A stretch of 64,000 nucleotides of DNA from Prorocentrum cordatum (taxonomy: Eukaryota; Sar; Dinophyceae; Prorocentrales; Prorocentraceae): contig CAUYUJ010012725.1 in NCBI GenBank assembly GCA_963575745.1, positions 12,501 through 76,500 on the forward strand. Direction: 5' to 3'. Shown here piece by piece: positions 1,924 through 59,535 of the stretch (position 1 is its first letter; the number at the start of each line of letters is the position of its first letter). The notes below the pieces were generated by a model. That model was not told the origin of the DNA and ran no database searches. It worked only from the letters and a program-made list of their open reading frames with translations. The position numbers and the translations under genes are program-made.

Positions 1924-1945
1924 CTTGAGCCAAAATGGCTACGGA
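1924..1945 (-). other. Dinoflagellate spliced-leader relic (DinoSL)
   Basis: A full 22-of-22 match on the minus strand to DCCGTAGCC...TTTTGGCTCAAG, with D = T. The leader is normally added by trans-splicing, so a genomic copy upstream of an ORF marks a reinserted cDNA. It is followed by CGAGCC rather than a GT donor, so it is not an SL RNA gene. Confidence 0.96.
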
Positions 1946-51319: not shown

Positions 51320-51702
51320 TATAGGAGGAGGAGGAGGAGGAGGGAGGAGGAGGAGGAGGAGGAGGAGGAGGAGGAGGAGGAGGAGGAGGAGGAGGAGGAG
51401 GAGGAGGATGGAGGAGGAGGAGGAGGAGGAGGAGGAGGAGGAGGAGGAGGAGGAGGAGAGGAGGAGGAGGAGGAGGAGGAGGAGGAGGAGGAGGAGGAGG
51501 GAGGGGGGGAGGGGAGGGGGGGAGGAGGGGGAGGAGGGGGAGGGGGAGGGGGGGGGAGGAGGGGGAGGAGGGGAGGAGGGGGAGGAGGGGGAGGAGGGGG
51601 AGGAGGGGGGGGAGGAGGAGGGGAGGAGGGGGAGGAGGGGGAGGAGGAGGAGGAGGAGGAGGAGGAGGAGGAGGAGGAGGAGGAGGAGGAGAGGAAGGAG
51701 GG
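51320..51702 (+). repeat. GGA microsatellite, 5' flank of the retrotransposon
   Basis: GGA, GGGGA and GGAGGGGGA steps, ending GAGGAGAGGAAGGAGGG directly at the first base of the spliced leader. Confidence 0.97.
51686..51702 (+). repeat. Target-site duplication, left copy
   Basis: GAGGAGAGGAAGGAGGG, identical to 56577-56593. The GAGAGGAAGG interruption of the plain GGA pattern makes this more specific than a chance match between two GGA tracts. Confidence 0.82.
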
Positions 51703-51724
51703 TCCGTAGCCATTTTGGCTCAAG
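51703..51724 (+). other. Dinoflagellate spliced leader (DinoSL) at the element 5' end
   Basis: A full 22-of-22 match with D = T, followed by TTCAAACC rather than a GT donor, so it is a leader joined to mRNA and not an SL RNA gene. The first base abuts the target duplication. Confidence 0.97.
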
Positions 51725-51862
51725 TTCAAACCGCTCGGCCCTGGCGGCTTGAGCTTGTTCGCAGCCAAGGGGCTGGCTCGATAGCCCCCAGCGATTTCGG
51801 CATCTCCTCTTCCTGGACTCCTCGCTCTCGCCCCAGTTCTTTGTCCACCAGCGGCGCGCGCC

Positions 51863-52833
51863 ATGAGTGGCCAGCATGGCTCTGCCGCATCCTCGGAGAC
51901 CCAACCTGCTACGCCACGCAGCGAGCAGGAGACGCCCCAGCGAAGATTGCCAGAGCTGGCGGCGATGACAATAATGAGATTCGTGCTTATGTTGATCGGA
52001 CTCGGTCTGAGCTGTTCGGCGCCCTGGACGGCGTCAAGCGGAGCCTGTCTGGCATCACTGAGAATCTGGACAAGCACTTCTACGGGCTCAGCCAGCAGCT
52101 GGAGCAGCGCTTCGCCAGAGTTGAAACGCGAGTCGACAATCACCAGAAGTCCATCACTGACATGCAGGCCGAGATCGCCGAGATGCGCCTGCTCCTCAAC
52201 TGTGTTAAGACGGAGACCCCGACCTCATCGACTCCTGTTTCTCAAGCACTCCACAGATCGACGAACCCGAGCATCATCGTGGTTCGAGCCCAGGCGCTTG
52301 TCTCGTCGGCGAAGGTCGCGGAGTGTATTGGCCCGTGGCTCGCCGACTGCAACCTCGACGTGGACGACTGGGAGGTCTCTACACTGGAGGGCCCCGCCGC
52401 GCGCCGCTTCACGGTCACCATCAGAGGCGCCGCTGGCTACGCAGCCAGGAAGGTTGCCCAGTGCCTTGGCAACCTCAGGAACCACGACAACACGTACAGG
52501 AGGTTCAACATTGTTGACGTTTCAGGTCAGCAAATACAATTGTTCGTGTCAAGCGACAAGAACACGTTCCAGATCAAGAGAGAGTTGTTCATCAAGCAGG
52601 CTCGCAAGCTCCTCTCGGAGAAGTACGAGCACAAGCGTTTCTTCACAGACCGCGGCAAGGGCGAGATCTCTTGCCAGTGGCGCCCCATCCTGCGGATCAC
52701 GCCAGTCGACGGGGAGGCCCCGACGATCGAGTGGGGCCGCACCGTGTGCAGCGAGCTGGGCATCGACAGCGACGGCATCGGCTCGCAGCTCAAGACCCTG
52801 TTCTGTGGTCCTGAGGCCCAGTGGAGCTCCTAG
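51863..52833 (+). CDS. LINE ORF1 protein (coiled coil, RRM-like), one frame change
   Basis: The first ATG after the leader (51863) gives MSGQHGSAASSETQPATPRS and EQETPQRRLPELA. The long ORF1 frame, one base earlier, continues from about 51955 as GGDDNNEIRAYVDRTRSELF to TAG 52831-52833 but has no ATG of its own at its N-terminus. A 1-nt deletion or sequence error is the simplest explanation; I see no canonical slippery heptamer. A coiled coil (about 51990-52215, VKRSLSGITENLDKHFYGLS, QQLEQRFARVETRVDNHQKS) is followed by an RRM-like part (SIIVVRAQALV, RRFTVTIRGAAGYAARKVAQ) and a basic C-terminal domain (TFQIKRELFIKQARKLLSEK). This order matches L1-type ORF1 proteins, trimeric RNA chaperones that coat element RNA. 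TAG is 4 nt before the ORF2 ATG. Confidence 0.72.
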
Positions 52834-52837
52834 CGGT

Positions 52838-55800
52838 ATGTTCAGTTTCTTCCCTTCTTCCTCTTCTCAGGACATGATCATTAAGTTCAGTACTTGGAAC
52901 GCCCGCTCTCTCTTCCACCATGACCCCAAGACCCGCTCCCGCAAGCAGGTCTACCTTCGCCCCCTCCTCCGCGGCTTCCAGTTTGTCGCCATCCAGGAGA
53001 CCCATGGTTCTTCAGAGGACCTCCAGGATTTCCTGCACTTCAGCAGTCACAGATTTGAAGCAGTCTTCTCGGGCTTCGACTCCAGGCGGAAAGGAGGTGT
53101 GGCCACTCTACTCCCCTCCCCGTGCTCCTCTTTCGGATTCGGCGCTTTGTCTAGCGTCACAGGCAGAGCTCTGGTGGTGGGCAGAGCTCTCTACACCTGT
53201 GTCAAGCTAGGCTCGCGGTCTAGTGGGTGCTCGGAGAATTTCACCACCCACCACTTTAACATCCATAACTTCCAGCTATCTTCGGAAGAGGTCCGACTCA
53301 TCGTTTCATATATCGACTCCTCTCTGGAACTTGTCCGATGCCATTCTCATTCGCACTTTGTGGTGGTGGCTGGTGATTTCAACTTCTCGAGCGAGCCGCC
53401 GCGCCCGACCATCCCGCCTCCGAACTTTGCCCCTGCGCCGGCGGTGCAGGAGTGGTTTGCATCGCGAGGCTCTGGCTGGAGGTCTACCTTGGGAGCCATG
53501 ATTGAGATCGATACCCCTGATATGACACACTACAATGGCACGTTCGACCATGCGTCCAAAATCGACAGGATTTTCTTATCGGGTCCCAGTTGGAGGCTTA
53601 CACAGATGTCGATCACGGCTGCCACGATAGAGACGCCTGAAGCCCTCGAACAGCGAGGGATTTCAGATCACGCTGCGCTGCAAGCTGTGCTACGCTTTCG
53701 CCCTCGCCCTGATCCTGACTCTCAACCAATCCCTAAACATCTCTTTCAGCATCCTCGATTCCGTGAATATGTTCTTGCCGCCTGGGAAAACATCGACGCG
53801 TCGAGCCTCTCCCCCCCGCTGGTCCTCCTACAGTACAAAGAAGTTATTCGTGAAGGTGCCCGTCAGGCTCGTAACAGCTTCCTCAAAGGGAACCCCACGG
53901 ACCCCAAACGCAAGATCCTCCTCCTCAGGGCTATCGCCAGGGCAGTTTGGAGACAAGATTTTCGAGGCGCTGGGAACCTACTACAGTATGATCTTGGGAA
54001 GGAATTCTTGGACCTGGATCTCGCCATCCCGTCTCTCTCCATCCGCAAGCACGCCGAATTTTGCACGCTCCTGGACTCTCTGCAGCTGGCTGACGCCGAA
54101 AGCGAGCAAGCTGCAATTCGTCGTAACATGACGGAGCTCAGCGCACCTGCGAAGTTGGCTAAGTCCAGGCGTCGACTTCGCGCGCTTGCCCGCCGTGCTC
54201 GTCTCTGGGCACCGTTCAACCGTCGGCTGCACCTCTCGGGGCTGAGCATTGGCCACAACACAACATCATCGGAGACTGAGATTCGGGAGGGCATCTCGGA
54301 CCACTGGAGGCAAGTTTTTGGGAACAAGTGTATCGATATTGAGGCCGCCTCTACCTATCTCGCCCGCTTCGCCCCCAAGATCACGCTCCCCGACCTGGAA
54401 CCCCCCTCGCTCCTGGACTTCCAGAAAACGAACCTGAAATCATCGGACTCTGCTCCTGGACCTGATCAAATCCCCTATGCGGCCTGGCGGGCTGCTCTGC
54501 ACTCCGTGGAAATCCTGGACAGTGTGTGCCGGTGGATCATCGGGGGCAACCACATGCCGTTTGGCTTCAACGCTCTTTTGGGCATCTTCGTCCCGAAACC
54601 TGCCGATGATGACATCTCTGAAGAATGCATTCGCCCAGCCAGTGGACTCCGACCCCTCGGGCTCAAGAACACAGATAACAAGCTGATTACATCGGTTGTA
54701 TTTCGCCGATTGTCTCTCGCTCTTCCTCGCAATCTCTGCGACAGCCAGCGTGGATTTGTAATGGGAAGGAATTTCGGCCAGAACGTCGTCGAGATCGACG
54801 GCTTCGCTCGTCTCTACTCCGCCGACCCCTCAGCCGTCTCTCTCAAGCCGGCCCTCGTGAGCTACGACTTCGGCGCGGCATTCCCGAGTCTCTCTCACCA
54901 ATGGATGCTCAAGGTGTTGGAATCCTGTACACTACCTGCCCCATTCGTGTTCTATGTGATGGAGATATACCGCTGCATCACATGCTACGGCATAAGTGCC
55001 GACTCCAGTTCCCAGCTCGTCGTGCTGTTCCAGATTCTCAGTGGAATTGTCCAGGGGTGCCCTGGACCGGGCGCCCTATTTGCAATCTCGGCAGATCCGT
55101 TTCTTCAAGATATGCAGTTGAGTATAGAAGGTCGCAAGTTGGGCATTGTCAGGGCATGTGCTGATGATGTGGGGGCTGCCATTCGTCAACTGTCCGCGCT
55201 CAAGATTATGGCACGCATCTTCAGAGTCGTTGCGCGGGTGGCATCACTTAAGCTCAAATGCAGCAAGTGTGTTGTGGTCCCTCTAGCCTCTTGCTTCTCG
55301 CCCGCCATCGCCAATGATTACAATAACTGGATCGAGCAGAACATCCCTTCCTGGAGTGAGTTCCCTGTGCGTGATCAGCTGAAATGCCTAGGCATCTGGC
55401 TCGGGCCCTCAGTCGCTACGGAGTCCTGGAGAGAGCCTTTCGCTAAATGGGTCGACCGCGGTTTCCAGCTTGCTTGTCAGGGTGCTCCTGCTGGGACTGT
55501 CGCTCATTTATATAACTCCAGAGTGGCTAGCGTACTATCGCATGTTGCTCAGTTCCTCCCTCCTCCTTCGGACCCCCCCCACCTCGAAAGTGTAGCTATT
55601 GCCCGCCTGCTTCGAATTCCGCACTTTGCTCCCCCTCGGTCTGGCCAGCTGTCTTTGCGCTCCTGGGGCGGTCCGCGATTCCATTGTTTGACGTCCACTT
55701 GTTGCTCCTCCCTCATTCGTGCTAGCAAACCTTCGCTCAGCGTCTGGCCATCTGCGATGACAGCTCTCAGAGAGGCCGCCGAGAGACATAGAGACGAGGC

Positions 55801-56545
55801 TACGTTGGCGAGCCTCCCTTTTTCCCCACTGTATCCCGATTTCTGGAAACAAGCTTCGTTCGCTGAATTCCTGGCCGCCGCATCTGAAGGATTCCCTCAG
55901 GATATTGGCAAGGGTCTCATTTCCTCCTCCCTTGCCGCGAGAAGGCGCGTGTCTGCTGCTGCCCTTGCTGCCCTCGACTCTCTCCGACTGAAGACCGAGG
56001 CCACTCCTGTAGGACAGACGTTCAAAATCCAGAGATTGCTCACCACTGGCATGCGTGAACATTTGCACCCAGCCTGCCTCGCGGAGGTGTTCGCCCAGAG
56101 GCTTGCCAGCTGGCTCCCGATTACGATTTCCGATGCTCGTGCGCTTCCTTGGTCTGACATCCAGACTACGGTCGCTGCGCTTCCGACAGCGAAATTGCTT
56201 GCGGTCCTCAAATTCCTGAAGCACGGCTGGCCCACAGCGGCCCGCTTTCAACAAATTGAGCCCTGCAGACTGGGCTGCGGCGCCCCAGCAGCAGATGCTC
56301 AAGAGCACTATTGGCGTTGCCCCAGATTCCTCACCCATCTCTGCTCTGTTGTTGATCTCCCTTTCCTTGCCTCGTGTCCCATTGCCCGTCTTGGCGTCCA
56401 CCATCCGTCCCGCGTCTCTCTGTCCATTCTCGCCGCTTCCACTTGGCTTTACCACGCTATCAGAGCTTGCAGCCCAGAGCCCTTCTCTAATTCAAAGGCC
56501 GCCGAAATCGCGATGACGGTTCGGTGGCAGATGCGGCGAGGCTAG
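52838..56545 (+). CDS. LINE ORF2 protein: EEP endonuclease, reverse transcriptase, zinc knuckle
   Basis: 1,235 residues, starting MFSFFPSSSSQDMIIKFSTW. The endonuclease spans about residues 13-288 with the expected residues: N21 (TWNAR), E54 (IQETHG), D180/N182 (AGDFNF), D243 (KIDRIF) and D277/H278 (ISDHAA); it nicks target DNA to prime copying. The reverse transcriptase spans about 520-860: APGPDQIP (539), RPLGLKNTDNKLI (605), motif A SYDFGAAFPS (D677), motif B QGCPGPGALF (739), motif C ACADDVGA (D776, D777) and motif E KCLGIWLG (849). Motif A has a Gly and motif C an Ala-Asp-Asp, acceptable variants. A C-x3-C-x9-H-x3-C knuckle lies at 1143-1161. No RNase H is seen. The frame is open upstream to 51863 without a stop, but that part reads as ORF1 shadow, so I start at 52838, 4 nt after the ORF1 stop. 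All catalytic residues are present, consistent with an active enzyme. Confidence 0.93.
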   Translation: MFSFFPSSSSQDMIIKFSTWNARSLFHHDPKTRSRKQVYLRPLLRGFQFVAIQETHGSSEDLQDFLHFSSHRFEAVFSGFDSRRKGGVATLLPSPCSSFGFGALSSVTGRALVVGRALYTCVKLGSRSSGCSENFTTHHFNIHNFQLSSEEVRLIVSYIDSSLELVRCHSHSHFVVVAGDFNFSSEPPRPTIPPPNFAPAPAVQEWFASRGSGWRSTLGAMIEIDTPDMTHYNGTFDHASKIDRIFLSGPSWRLTQMSITAATIETPEALEQRGISDHAALQAVLRFRPRPDPDSQPIPKHLFQHPRFREYVLAAWENIDASSLSPPLVLLQYKEVIREGARQARNSFLKGNPTDPKRKILLLRAIARAVWRQDFRGAGNLLQYDLGKEFLDLDLAIPSLSIRKHAEFCTLLDSLQLADAESEQAAIRRNMTELSAPAKLAKSRRRLRALARRARLWAPFNRRLHLSGLSIGHNTTSSETEIREGISDHWRQVFGNKCIDIEAASTYLARFAPKITLPDLEPPSLLDFQKTNLKSSDSAPGPDQIPYAAWRAALHSVEILDSVCRWIIGGNHMPFGFNALLGIFVPKPADDDISEECIRPASGLRPLGLKNTDNKLITSVVFRRLSLALPRNLCDSQRGFVMGRNFGQNVVEIDGFARLYSADPSAVSLKPALVSYDFGAAFPSLSHQWMLKVLESCTLPAPFVFYVMEIYRCITCYGISADSSSQLVVLFQILSGIVQGCPGPGALFAISADPFLQDMQLSIEGRKLGIVRACADDVGAAIRQLSALKIMARIFRVVARVASLKLKCSKCVVVPLASCFSPAIANDYNNWIEQNIPSWSEFPVRDQLKCLGIWLGPSVATESWREPFAKWVDRGFQLACQGAPAGTVAHLYNSRVASVLSHVAQFLPPPSDPPHLESVAIARLLRIPHFAPPRSGQLSLRSWGGPRFHCLTSTCCSSLIRASKPSLSVWPSAMTALREAAERHRDEATLASLPFSPLYPDFWKQASFAEFLAAASEGFPQDIGKGLISSSLAARRRVSAAALAALDSLRLKTEATPVGQTFKIQRLLTTGMREHLHPACLAEVFAQRLASWLPITISDARALPWSDIQTTVAALPTAKLLAVLKFLKHGWPTAARFQQIEPCRLGCGAPAADAQEHYWRCPRFLTHLCSVVDLPFLASCPIARLGVHHPSRVSLSILAASTWLYHAIRACSPEPFSNSKAAEIAMTVRWQMRRG

Positions 56546-56576
56546 ACGAGCTCGAACTTCATGCCGAGGCACGTGC

Positions 56577-56593
56577 GAGGAGAGGAAGGAGGG
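56577..56593 (+). repeat. Target-site duplication, right copy
   Basis: GAGGAGAGGAAGGAGGG, identical to 51686-51702, directly after the 33-nt 3' end (ACGAGCTCG...GCACGTGC) of the element. Confidence 0.82.
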
Positions 56594-57920: not shown

Positions 57921-58457
57921 TGCCAGCCCCACGCGCCGTGGGAGGGCAGAGGGATACCGAGGCCCGCTCCGCGGCCCAGGGGAACGCCGCTCCCCAGACA
58001 TTGGGCGCGGCGCCCCGAGCGTCGCCCCGAAGCGCGTCGCAGCGACGCCCGAGGCGCCAGGGGCGCGAAGAACCCCCAGCGGCGCGGGCGCGGCGAGGCA
58101 AAGCGCGCGCACCGCGCGCGCGACGGGCCTCGCCAGCGGCGCAGCGGGCGCGCCCGCCAGCTTCACAACGGCGGCCACCAGGCCAGCGGCCGCGCATAGG
58201 CGGACCGCGGACAGGAGAAAGCAGGAGCGCAGAAGCGGCAGCCGCACAGGCAGAGCAGGGCCCCAGCACCCCCCCCCCCCCCCCCCACACACACACACAT
58301 GCACGCAACACGCGCACACACACGCCCACACCACACACACCACACACCACACACCACACACCACACACCACACACCACACACCACACACCACACGCACAC
58401 GCACACGCACACGCACACGCACACGCACACGCACACGCACACGCACACACACACACA

Positions 58458-58518
<61 letters not shown>

Positions 58519-59535
58519 CCCTGCACCCCGCCCCCCCCCGCCCCGAGGGCGAGGAGAGGGCGGGGGGGCAGGGCGGGCGCAGGAGCGGCATTCGTGCAAG
58601 CCCACAAACGCAGCTACAGTGCGAGCACAGTCCCCGAGTTTGCGGGTTCATCGCGCATGCCAGCCCCACGCGCCGTGGGAGGACAGAGGGCTGCCGAGGC
58701 CCGCTTCGCGGCCCAGGGGAACGCCGCCCCCTGGGGCGCGGCGCCCCGAGCGTCGCCCCGACGCGCGTCGCAGCGACGCCCGAGGCGCCAGGGGCGCGAC
58801 GTGCCCGACGCCAGATCGTGGCCCTGGTGGCTCGGGCGGCGCCTGCCCCAGAGGCGCACCGCCCCCCGCTGCGTGCGCCTGCTGGGGCGATGCAAGGCAC
58901 GAGGCCGCGTTGCGTTGACCTCCCAAGCGGGGGGCGCCACAGTGCGCTGCGGCTCGATGCACCGCCAGGGCGCATGAATCGGATGAGGAGTCGCTGCTGG
59001 AAGACTCGCCCAAATGCGCCTGCGAGCGACGAATGCATTGCGGACCGCCTAAATGCGGAACGCATCGCGCCTCCACATTCACAAAACGCGGCGCGCGGCC
59101 TCGCATAGGCAGCGCGCGCGCCACGGGCCTCGCGGGCCCCCACCCCCAGAGAGGCGAACCCACAGCGCGCGCAACCGCGCGCGCGGGCGGGCCCATCGAG
59201 GCCGCCCCAACGCCACCCGCATCGCGGCGCGGTGGCCCAGCGCGGCGGGACAGGCGCCCGCCGGCTTCACAACGGCGGCCAACAGGCCAGTGGCCGCACA
59301 TGGGCGGGCCGCGGACAAGAGAAAGCAGGGGCGCTGAAGCGGCAGCCGCGCAGGCAAAGCAGCGCCAGCATCCCCCGCCCCACCCGCGGCCCTGCACCCC
59401 GACCCCCCCCCGCCCCGGGGGCCCCGAGGACGAGGGGAAGGCAGGGGGGCAGGGCAGACGCAGGAGCGGCATTCGTGCAAGCCCACAAACGCAGCGACAG
59501 CGCGAGCACTGTCCCCGAGTTTGTGGGCCCATATG
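57921..59535 (+). repeat. Tandem duplication, two units of ~0.74 and ~0.88 kb
   Basis: Three landmarks recur in order: GCCAGCCCCACGCGCCGTGG (57921, 58659), CTTCACAACGGCGGCCA (58160, 59262) and GCAGGAGCGGCATTCGTGCA (58579, 59460). Unit 1 holds a CA expansion between landmarks 2 and 3; unit 2 holds 350-400 bp extra between landmarks 1 and 2. Confidence 0.85.
58285..58520 (+). repeat. Compound CA microsatellite
   Basis: Ordered blocks: (CACACAC) start, (CACCACACAC)n, (GCACAC)n, then pure (CA)n. The block order records successive expansions of different units. Confidence 0.97.

What the first reader, a model, noticed from the sequence alone, without database searches (positions are those of the whole stretch)
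51703..56578. Full-length LINE whose genomic 5' end is exactly the dinoflagellate spliced leader, inside a perfect 17-bp target duplication
The element starts at base 1 of DinoSL and is flanked on both sides by GAGGAGAGGAAGGAGGG. The template must therefore have been a trans-spliced mRNA, and reverse transcription reached its extreme 5' end. If the leader is part of every copy, the element either relies on host trans-splicing to mature its RNA or regains the leader each cycle (a genomic SL followed by a new acceptor would give doubled leaders; only one is present). With intact ORF2 catalytic residues and an exact duplication, this is a candidate active, SL-dependent retrotransposon.
Basis: partly seen in the sequence, partly recalled or inferred. 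Interest (0 to 1): 0.92.

Follow-up and report, generated by a model that had tools for sequence, protein, structure and literature searches.

The report
LINE family carrying host spliced leader
In a dinoflagellate genome a family of jumping genes starts, in the full-length copies examined, with the 22-base tag that the cell splices onto its own messages, and a conserved RNA hairpin just behind the tag seems to pair with the tag's last bases, so the tag may be a working part of the element.

Summary
A LINE occupies 51703-56576, starts at base 1 of DinoSL and lies inside an exact 17-bp duplication. The genome (4.13 Gb, probably Prorocentrum cordatum) holds five further full-length places, four of them independent insertions, all starting at the leader. 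Five more 3' ends lack the 5' part.

New here: a ~57-nt module directly behind the leader is shared by diverged families. It folds into a 13-bp stem whose base is the leader's own CAAG; one pair covaries strongly. In a leader-independent sample, 41 of 47 module copies have the leader directly upstream; none clearly has another sequence there.

Corrections: the window copy has a one-base ORF1 frameshift relative to the others, so it is a poor candidate for activity. Doubled leaders do occur. One leader does not exclude re-splicing, since splicing at the leader's terminal AG replaces it exactly. Exact leaders number 14,218 genome-wide: the tag is common, the module anchored on it is unusual. Renewal by trans-splicing or inheritance in DNA: unresolved.

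The parts
51686..51702 (+). 5' target-site duplication GAGGAGAGGAAGGAGGG
   Evidence: only two places in the window, 0 in 100 shuffles
51703..51724 (+). DinoSL, 22 nt, exact; first bases of the element
   Evidence: DinoSL consensus as printed in PMC6050394 (passages)
51725..51781 (+). conserved 5' module directly behind the leader (57 nt)
   Evidence: 0 of 57 sites vary among five family A rows, against 13 of 81 in the rest of the 5' UTR; shared with diverged families
51721..51757 (+). central RNA stem-loop: 5' strand 51721-51734 (its first four bases are the leader's CAAG), 3' strand 51744-51757 (ends CUUG)
   Evidence: 95.2% of cells paired; three pair types at one position; second set
51759..51781 (+). 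second, weaker hairpin of the module
   Evidence: 75.3% of cells paired
51863..52833 (+). ORF1 (coiled-coil-like by eye), frameshifted in this copy near 51934 relative to the other copies
52838..56545 (+). ORF2, 1235 codons from the first ATG at 52838
   Evidence: third codon positions vary most among family A copies
52892..53671 (+). ORF2 endonuclease domain (PF03372)
54638..55282 (+). ORF2 reverse transcriptase domain (PF00078)
56546..56576 (+). 31-nt 3' UTR ending CACGTGC, no poly(A)
   Evidence: same terminus in the other five family A places
56577..56593 (+). 3' target-site duplication

Best explanation
This is a LINE whose retrotransposing RNA begins with the host spliced leader. Shown: the full-length copies seen start at leader base 1, lie mostly behind GGA repeats, and carry target duplications where these can be read. 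Shown: directly behind the leader sits a conserved module with a covarying stem; the leader's last four bases can form the base of that stem, opposite a nearly invariant CUUG. Inferred: genomic copies are transcribed by readthrough and host trans-splicing sets the 5' end. The usual acceptor is the leader's own terminal AG, which replaces the old leader exactly and keeps one copy; occasional use of the internal AG at nt 6-7 leaves a 15-nt relict. Reverse transcription then runs to the cap of the leader-bearing RNA. Inferred: the stem makes presence of the leader part of the RNA's function (translation, or recognition of a complete 5' end by the element's proteins).
For: Six of six near-full-length family A places (five independent insertions; L035 and L036 share 1000 of 1000 upstream bases) start at leader base 1 or 2. 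In a leader-independent pattern search (58 hits, reversed control 10) 51 of 58 were read: 4 chance, 47 with module. Of the 47, 41 have a leader (intact or decayed) directly upstream, 1 keeps only leader nt 11-22 clearly (L051), 3 have a leader with an internal deletion (L098; L099 and its duplicate L100), 2 are truncated inside the module (L083, L102). Re-splicing of leader-bearing copies: five exact tandem leaders with module, one of them inside an exact 19-bp duplication (L050). Stem: 21 cells changed on both sides against 7.3 in shuffles, covariation score 0.197 against 0.116, each 0 of 500; the variable pair holds in 30 of 32 sequences and, in later copies, 25 of 27, against permuted means of 13.7 and 13.1, 0 of 5000. 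The four leader pairs hold in 27, 29, 29 and 29 of 29 rows. Extra G before the leader in L034 and L033 fits reverse transcription of a capped end.
Against: No transcript data. The leader hardly varies, so its pairing cannot be tested by covariation. The covariation rests mainly on one pair (14 of the 21 two-sided cells); the number of pairs with two-sided changes is no higher than in shuffles (216 of 500, 341 of 500), the number of pair types only modestly (14 and 50 of 500), and shuffles ignore relatedness. One sister pair (L081, L104) shares a leader change (T12G), which looks inherited, although the nine T12G copies among 55 are not clustered overall (1957 of 3000 random sets as close). In tandem copies the inner relict is more decayed in L095 and about so in L096, equal in L087, and less decayed in L084, so relative age of the leaders is mixed. 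Most copies have no pyrimidine tract upstream of the leader (27 of 39 follow a GGA tract), and the presumed acceptor AG lies in the stem. The tandem rate of the element (4 of 37 with exact outer leader) is like that of all exact leaders (1,202 of 14,218), so it does not set the element apart.
Confidence: 0.5

Rival explanations
1. Hard-wired leader: the module is an internal promoter, transcription starts at leader base 1, and the leader is inherited in DNA as mimicry of host mRNA. No trans-splicing is needed in the normal cycle; tandem leaders come from rare readthrough transcripts.
For: Module invariant among five family A rows. L081 and L104, nearest neighbours by module, share the leader change T12G. 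Trypanosomatid LINEs share a 77-nt 5' promoter that makes unspliced RNA (PMC8190864, passages). A dinoflagellate RNA virus assembly carries a 5' dinoSL, described as speculated mimicry (PMC10235124, passages). The stem would bury the leader's terminal AG.
Against: In two other close pairs the leader change is private (L058 against L059, L060 against L029), and T12G is not clustered overall. The module varies by compensatory change at its best pair, which points to RNA structure and not to a DNA site alone.
Confidence: 0.32
2. Incidental leader: the element's RNA is simply one of many trans-spliced mRNAs that get copied, and neither the leader nor the stem matters to the element.
For: 14,218 exact leaders in the genome. 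Four incidental leaders without module were seen in the window and the fetched loci L031-L050: three follow a GGA or TCC tract and the fourth a less strict pyrimidine-rich stretch. Tandem rate like the genome's.
Against: The module is conserved next to the leader in diverged families, with CUUG opposite the leader's CAAG. No leaderless full-length copy was found.
Confidence: 0.16
3. Chance or assembly artefact.
For: The region is rich in GGA repeats; the assembly holds duplicated insertions (L035/L036; L099/L100; L063/L069 by eye).
Against: Several independent insertions with different flanks and duplications; reversed-pattern controls 0.
Confidence: 0.01

Closest known systems
DinoSL-DinoRL retrogenes of dinoflagellates (Slamovits and Keeling 2008, known to me through PMC3229502, PMC6050394 and PMC12014239, passages)
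   Same: Leader-tagged cDNA in the genome; 15-nt relicts from the internal AG at nt 6-7
   Different: Those are host genes; here a self-coding LINE carries the leader in its full-length copies, followed by a conserved module with a stem based on the leader's end
Trypanosomatid ingi/L1Tc elements with Pr77 (PMC8190864, passages)
   Same: A conserved ~77-nt 5' end shared by several element families in a lineage with spliced leaders
   Different: Pr77 is a promoter plus HDV-like ribozyme giving unspliced RNA; here the 5' end is the leader itself and Rfam shows no ribozyme
L1-type LINEs (recalled) with ORF1, APE-type endonuclease and reverse transcriptase
   Same: Two ORFs, PF03372 and PF00078 in ORF2, target duplications, 5'-truncated copies
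   Different: Insertion mostly behind GGA repeats, no poly(A), 31-nt 3' UTR, leader at the 5' end
dinoRNAV with 5' dinoSL (PMC10235124, passages, citing Levin 2017)
   Same: A selfish RNA bearing the host leader
   Different: RNA virus, not a LINE

Membership tests
LINE (non-LTR retrotransposon) | ORF2 with endonuclease and reverse transcriptase | tested here: met
   PF03372 3e-11, PF00078 7.4e-12, both above cut-off
LINE (non-LTR retrotransposon) | target-site duplication and 5'-truncated copies | tested here: met
   duplications. Truncation: five 3' ends have no 5' match (their 5' boundaries were not read); L083 and L102 end inside the module
L1 clade | place in a reverse transcriptase tree; L1-type ORF1 fold | not tested
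   no tree built; structure job not accepted; Pfam gave no ORF1 match above cut-off
DinoSL retrocopy | exact leader at the 5' boundary of the insertion | tested here: met
DinoSL retrocopy | source RNA trans-spliced | not testable with these tools
   no transcripts available; indirect support from tandem leaders
Pr77-type 5' end (promoter plus HDV-like ribozyme) | HDV-like ribozyme at the 5' end | tested here: not met
   no Rfam family at gathering score in the window; 51650-51950 at E up to 10 gives four weak matches, none a ribozyme
Pr77-type 5' end (promoter plus HDV-like ribozyme) | internal promoter activity | not testable with these tools
   needs a bench assay

The most novel reading that the evidence does not exclude
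The leader is a structural part of the element: its 3' end is one strand of a conserved RNA clamp, so only leader-bearing, hence mature and complete, RNA is a proper template. Trans-splicing then acts as a quality check on retrotransposition, and this group of LINEs may also have helped spread the genome's 14,218 exact leader tags.
Probability: 0.28. Interest if true: 0.85.

Novelty: new variant of a known kind. Interest (0 to 1): 0.6.

Why it matters
PMC6050394 (passages) says that it is unknown which type of retroelement mediates retroposition in dinoflagellates and leans to LTR elements (Ty1/copia); PMC10235124 (passages) leans to LINEs for viral insertions. A LINE that itself carries the leader, with duplications and GGA-tract targets, is a concrete candidate whose insertion signature can be compared with that of host retrogenes. 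A stem based on the leader would be a new link between trans-splicing and retrotransposition. In the listings of searches, and the passages read, I saw no report of it; most subscription papers are not held.

Tried and rejected
HDV-like ribozyme at the 5' end: considered because of Pr77; no Rfam match, and by eye no partner for leader nt 1-7. Pairing of leader UUGGCU with module AGCCRA: 92.5% of cells paired, but the same bases can form hairpins within the leader and within the module, so I do not claim it. Loop-to-tail pseudoknot: own pairs 15.2 against 14.5 in permutations, 31 of 2000 at least as high, suggestive only. ORF1 relatives by protein search: none among 1567 candidates. ORF2 relatives: 7 of 7999 candidates scored, best an annotated P. 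cordatum protein at 38%. Viral contigs: no relative of ORF2, no module, one record with two leaders. Leader variant T12G: 558 genome-wide; the control variant did not complete, so whether it is a second SL RNA is open. Count of leaders behind GGA tracts: not completed. The family B DNA query did not complete.

Limits: codon positions printed for ORF2 are shifted by one; the high count (333 of 1224) belongs to third positions. In one search, 28 of 30 copies could be placed (not L062, L064), L095 was cut from its outer leader, and 27 of 28 entered. Seven of the 58 pattern hits were never fetched. Counts of 39 and 47 include a few duplicated insertions. Presence of module was judged by eye.

Full report
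What is there. The window (61.8% G+C) lies in a 4.13-Gb assembly of 21,875 contigs. Size, G+C and the closest annotated protein suggest Prorocentrum cordatum (published 4.15 Gb, 22,724 scaffolds, 59.7% G+C; PMC10666404 passages; protein); this is inference. At 51703-56576 lies a LINE of 4,874 bases: leader, 5' UTR, ORF1, ORF2, a 31-nt 3' UTR without poly(A), between exact 17-bp duplications. ORF2 and ORF1 vary most at third codon positions among five family A rows: 333 of 1224 third against 96 and 100 of 1223 at the other positions in ORF2, and 27 of 296, 7 of 296 and 79 of 297 at positions 1, 2 and 3 of ORF1 (the printed ORF2 position labels are shifted by one). This indicates past selection on the proteins. 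The window copy has a one-base deletion near 51934 in ORF1 relative to the other rows. Copies with both frames open exist elsewhere in the genome.

Copies. With 51703-52838 as query, 40 of 302 candidates were scored. Six places match at 93-100% along the whole query, all from base 1 or 2; two of them are one insertion duplicated in the assembly. The 3' query, which is independent of the leader, scored all 18 candidates: 11 places at 86% or more reach the 3' end, of which six are the above and five have no 5' match, as expected of 5' truncation (their 5' boundaries were not read). A related family B (L040-L044, L046-L048, L050), found through its 5' end, begins with the leader as well; 3' ends were found in all of these but L046. 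Upstream flanks of 13 copies show only six weak matches, hundreds of bases from the leader. Readable duplications besides the window's: L050 19 bp exact, L048 18 bp then CG, L034 19 bp then an extra G, L033 19 bp then three extra G. Of 39 module-bearing copies, 27 follow a GGA tract, 5 a TCC tract and 7 neither; background positions fall in each class in about 2.5-3.3%.

The module. Short matches showed that the first ~79 bases recur in other families. An alignment of 29 distinct modules supports a stem of 13 pairs from the leader's CAAG to CUUG. 95.2% of its cells are paired; one position shows C-G 13, A-U 7 and G-C 7. For the structure, cells changed on both sides number 21 against 7.3 in shuffles; slid versions pair 21-51% and 19-43%. 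Against this: the number of pairs with two-sided change is no higher than in shuffles (216 and 341 of 500), so the covariation rests mainly on one pair, with some at a second; and shuffles ignore relatedness. A second set gave 25 of 27 paired at that position against a permuted mean of 13.1. That set was partly chosen by a pattern fixing most of the 3' strand but leaving this base free, and includes relatives of the first set. A second hairpin is weaker (75.3%), and a loop pseudoknot is only suggestive.

Is the leader always there? The pattern GGCTTNAGCTTGNNCGCAG, which contains no leader base, has 58 hits (reversed control 10). I read 51: 25 already in hand and 26 fetched. Four are chance. 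Of 47 with module, 41 have a leader directly upstream (intact or decayed), L051 keeps only nt 11-22 clearly, three have a leader with an internal deletion (L098 and L099, the latter seen again as L100), and two are truncated inside the module (L083, L102).

How the leader is kept single. Exact single leader plus TTNAA: 34 places, 33 with module. Exact tandem leader cores plus TTNAA: 6 places, 5 with module. With an exact outer leader this is 33 single and 4 tandem. Genome-wide, 1,202 of 14,218 exact leaders are tandem. The tandem copies show that leader-bearing copies are re-spliced at the internal AG, as described for retrogenes (PMC3229502 passages). Since LINE lineages must have passed through many cycles (inference), arrays should grow unless the leader is usually replaced exactly at its terminal AG or is inherited in DNA. 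The data do not decide between these. For replacement: host genes in this lineage are processed in this way, and leader changes are private in two close pairs (L058/L059, L060/L029). Against it: the nearest neighbours L081 and L104 share T12G; yet the nine T12G copies among 55 are not clustered overall (1957 of 3000 random sets as close), which would also fit a second SL RNA. I lean to replacement, weakly.

What it is not. The leader alone is not remarkable in this genome. The window has a second exact leader at 1924-1945 (minus strand) without module. The unusual part is the conserved module that can take up the leader's end.

Noticed in passing
window 1924-1945, minus strand: Second exact DinoSL behind a ~400-nt TCC-rich tract, followed by a reading frame of about 140 aa from 1851; likely a leader-tagged retrocopy.
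   Followed up: partly
L032:7687, L041:1874, L045:5159: Incidental leaders without module: behind a GGA tract (L032), a TCC tract (L045) and a looser pyrimidine-rich stretch (L041, leader with one mismatch).
   Followed up: partly
L009, L015, L052, L081, L082, L092, L093, L094, L104: The same leader change (T12G) recurs in different families; 558 leaders with this change alone genome-wide. Possibly a second SL RNA; no control count obtained.
   Followed up: partly
L033:8365: Old tandem-leader module copy met by chance downstream of a full-length family A element.
   Followed up: no
L045, about 938-1000 on its reverse strand: A CACGTGC|GAGGAGG junction, like the 3' end of these LINEs, lies about 30 bases before the leader of another element: perhaps one insertion next to another.
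   Followed up: no
L078:2746-2766 and 2893-2913: IMG/VR contig with two exact DinoSL copies on the minus strand.
   Followed up: no
window 58133-59385: CA/CACG simple repeats and a duplicated segment (58133-58281 and 59237-59385, 81% alike).
   Followed up: no
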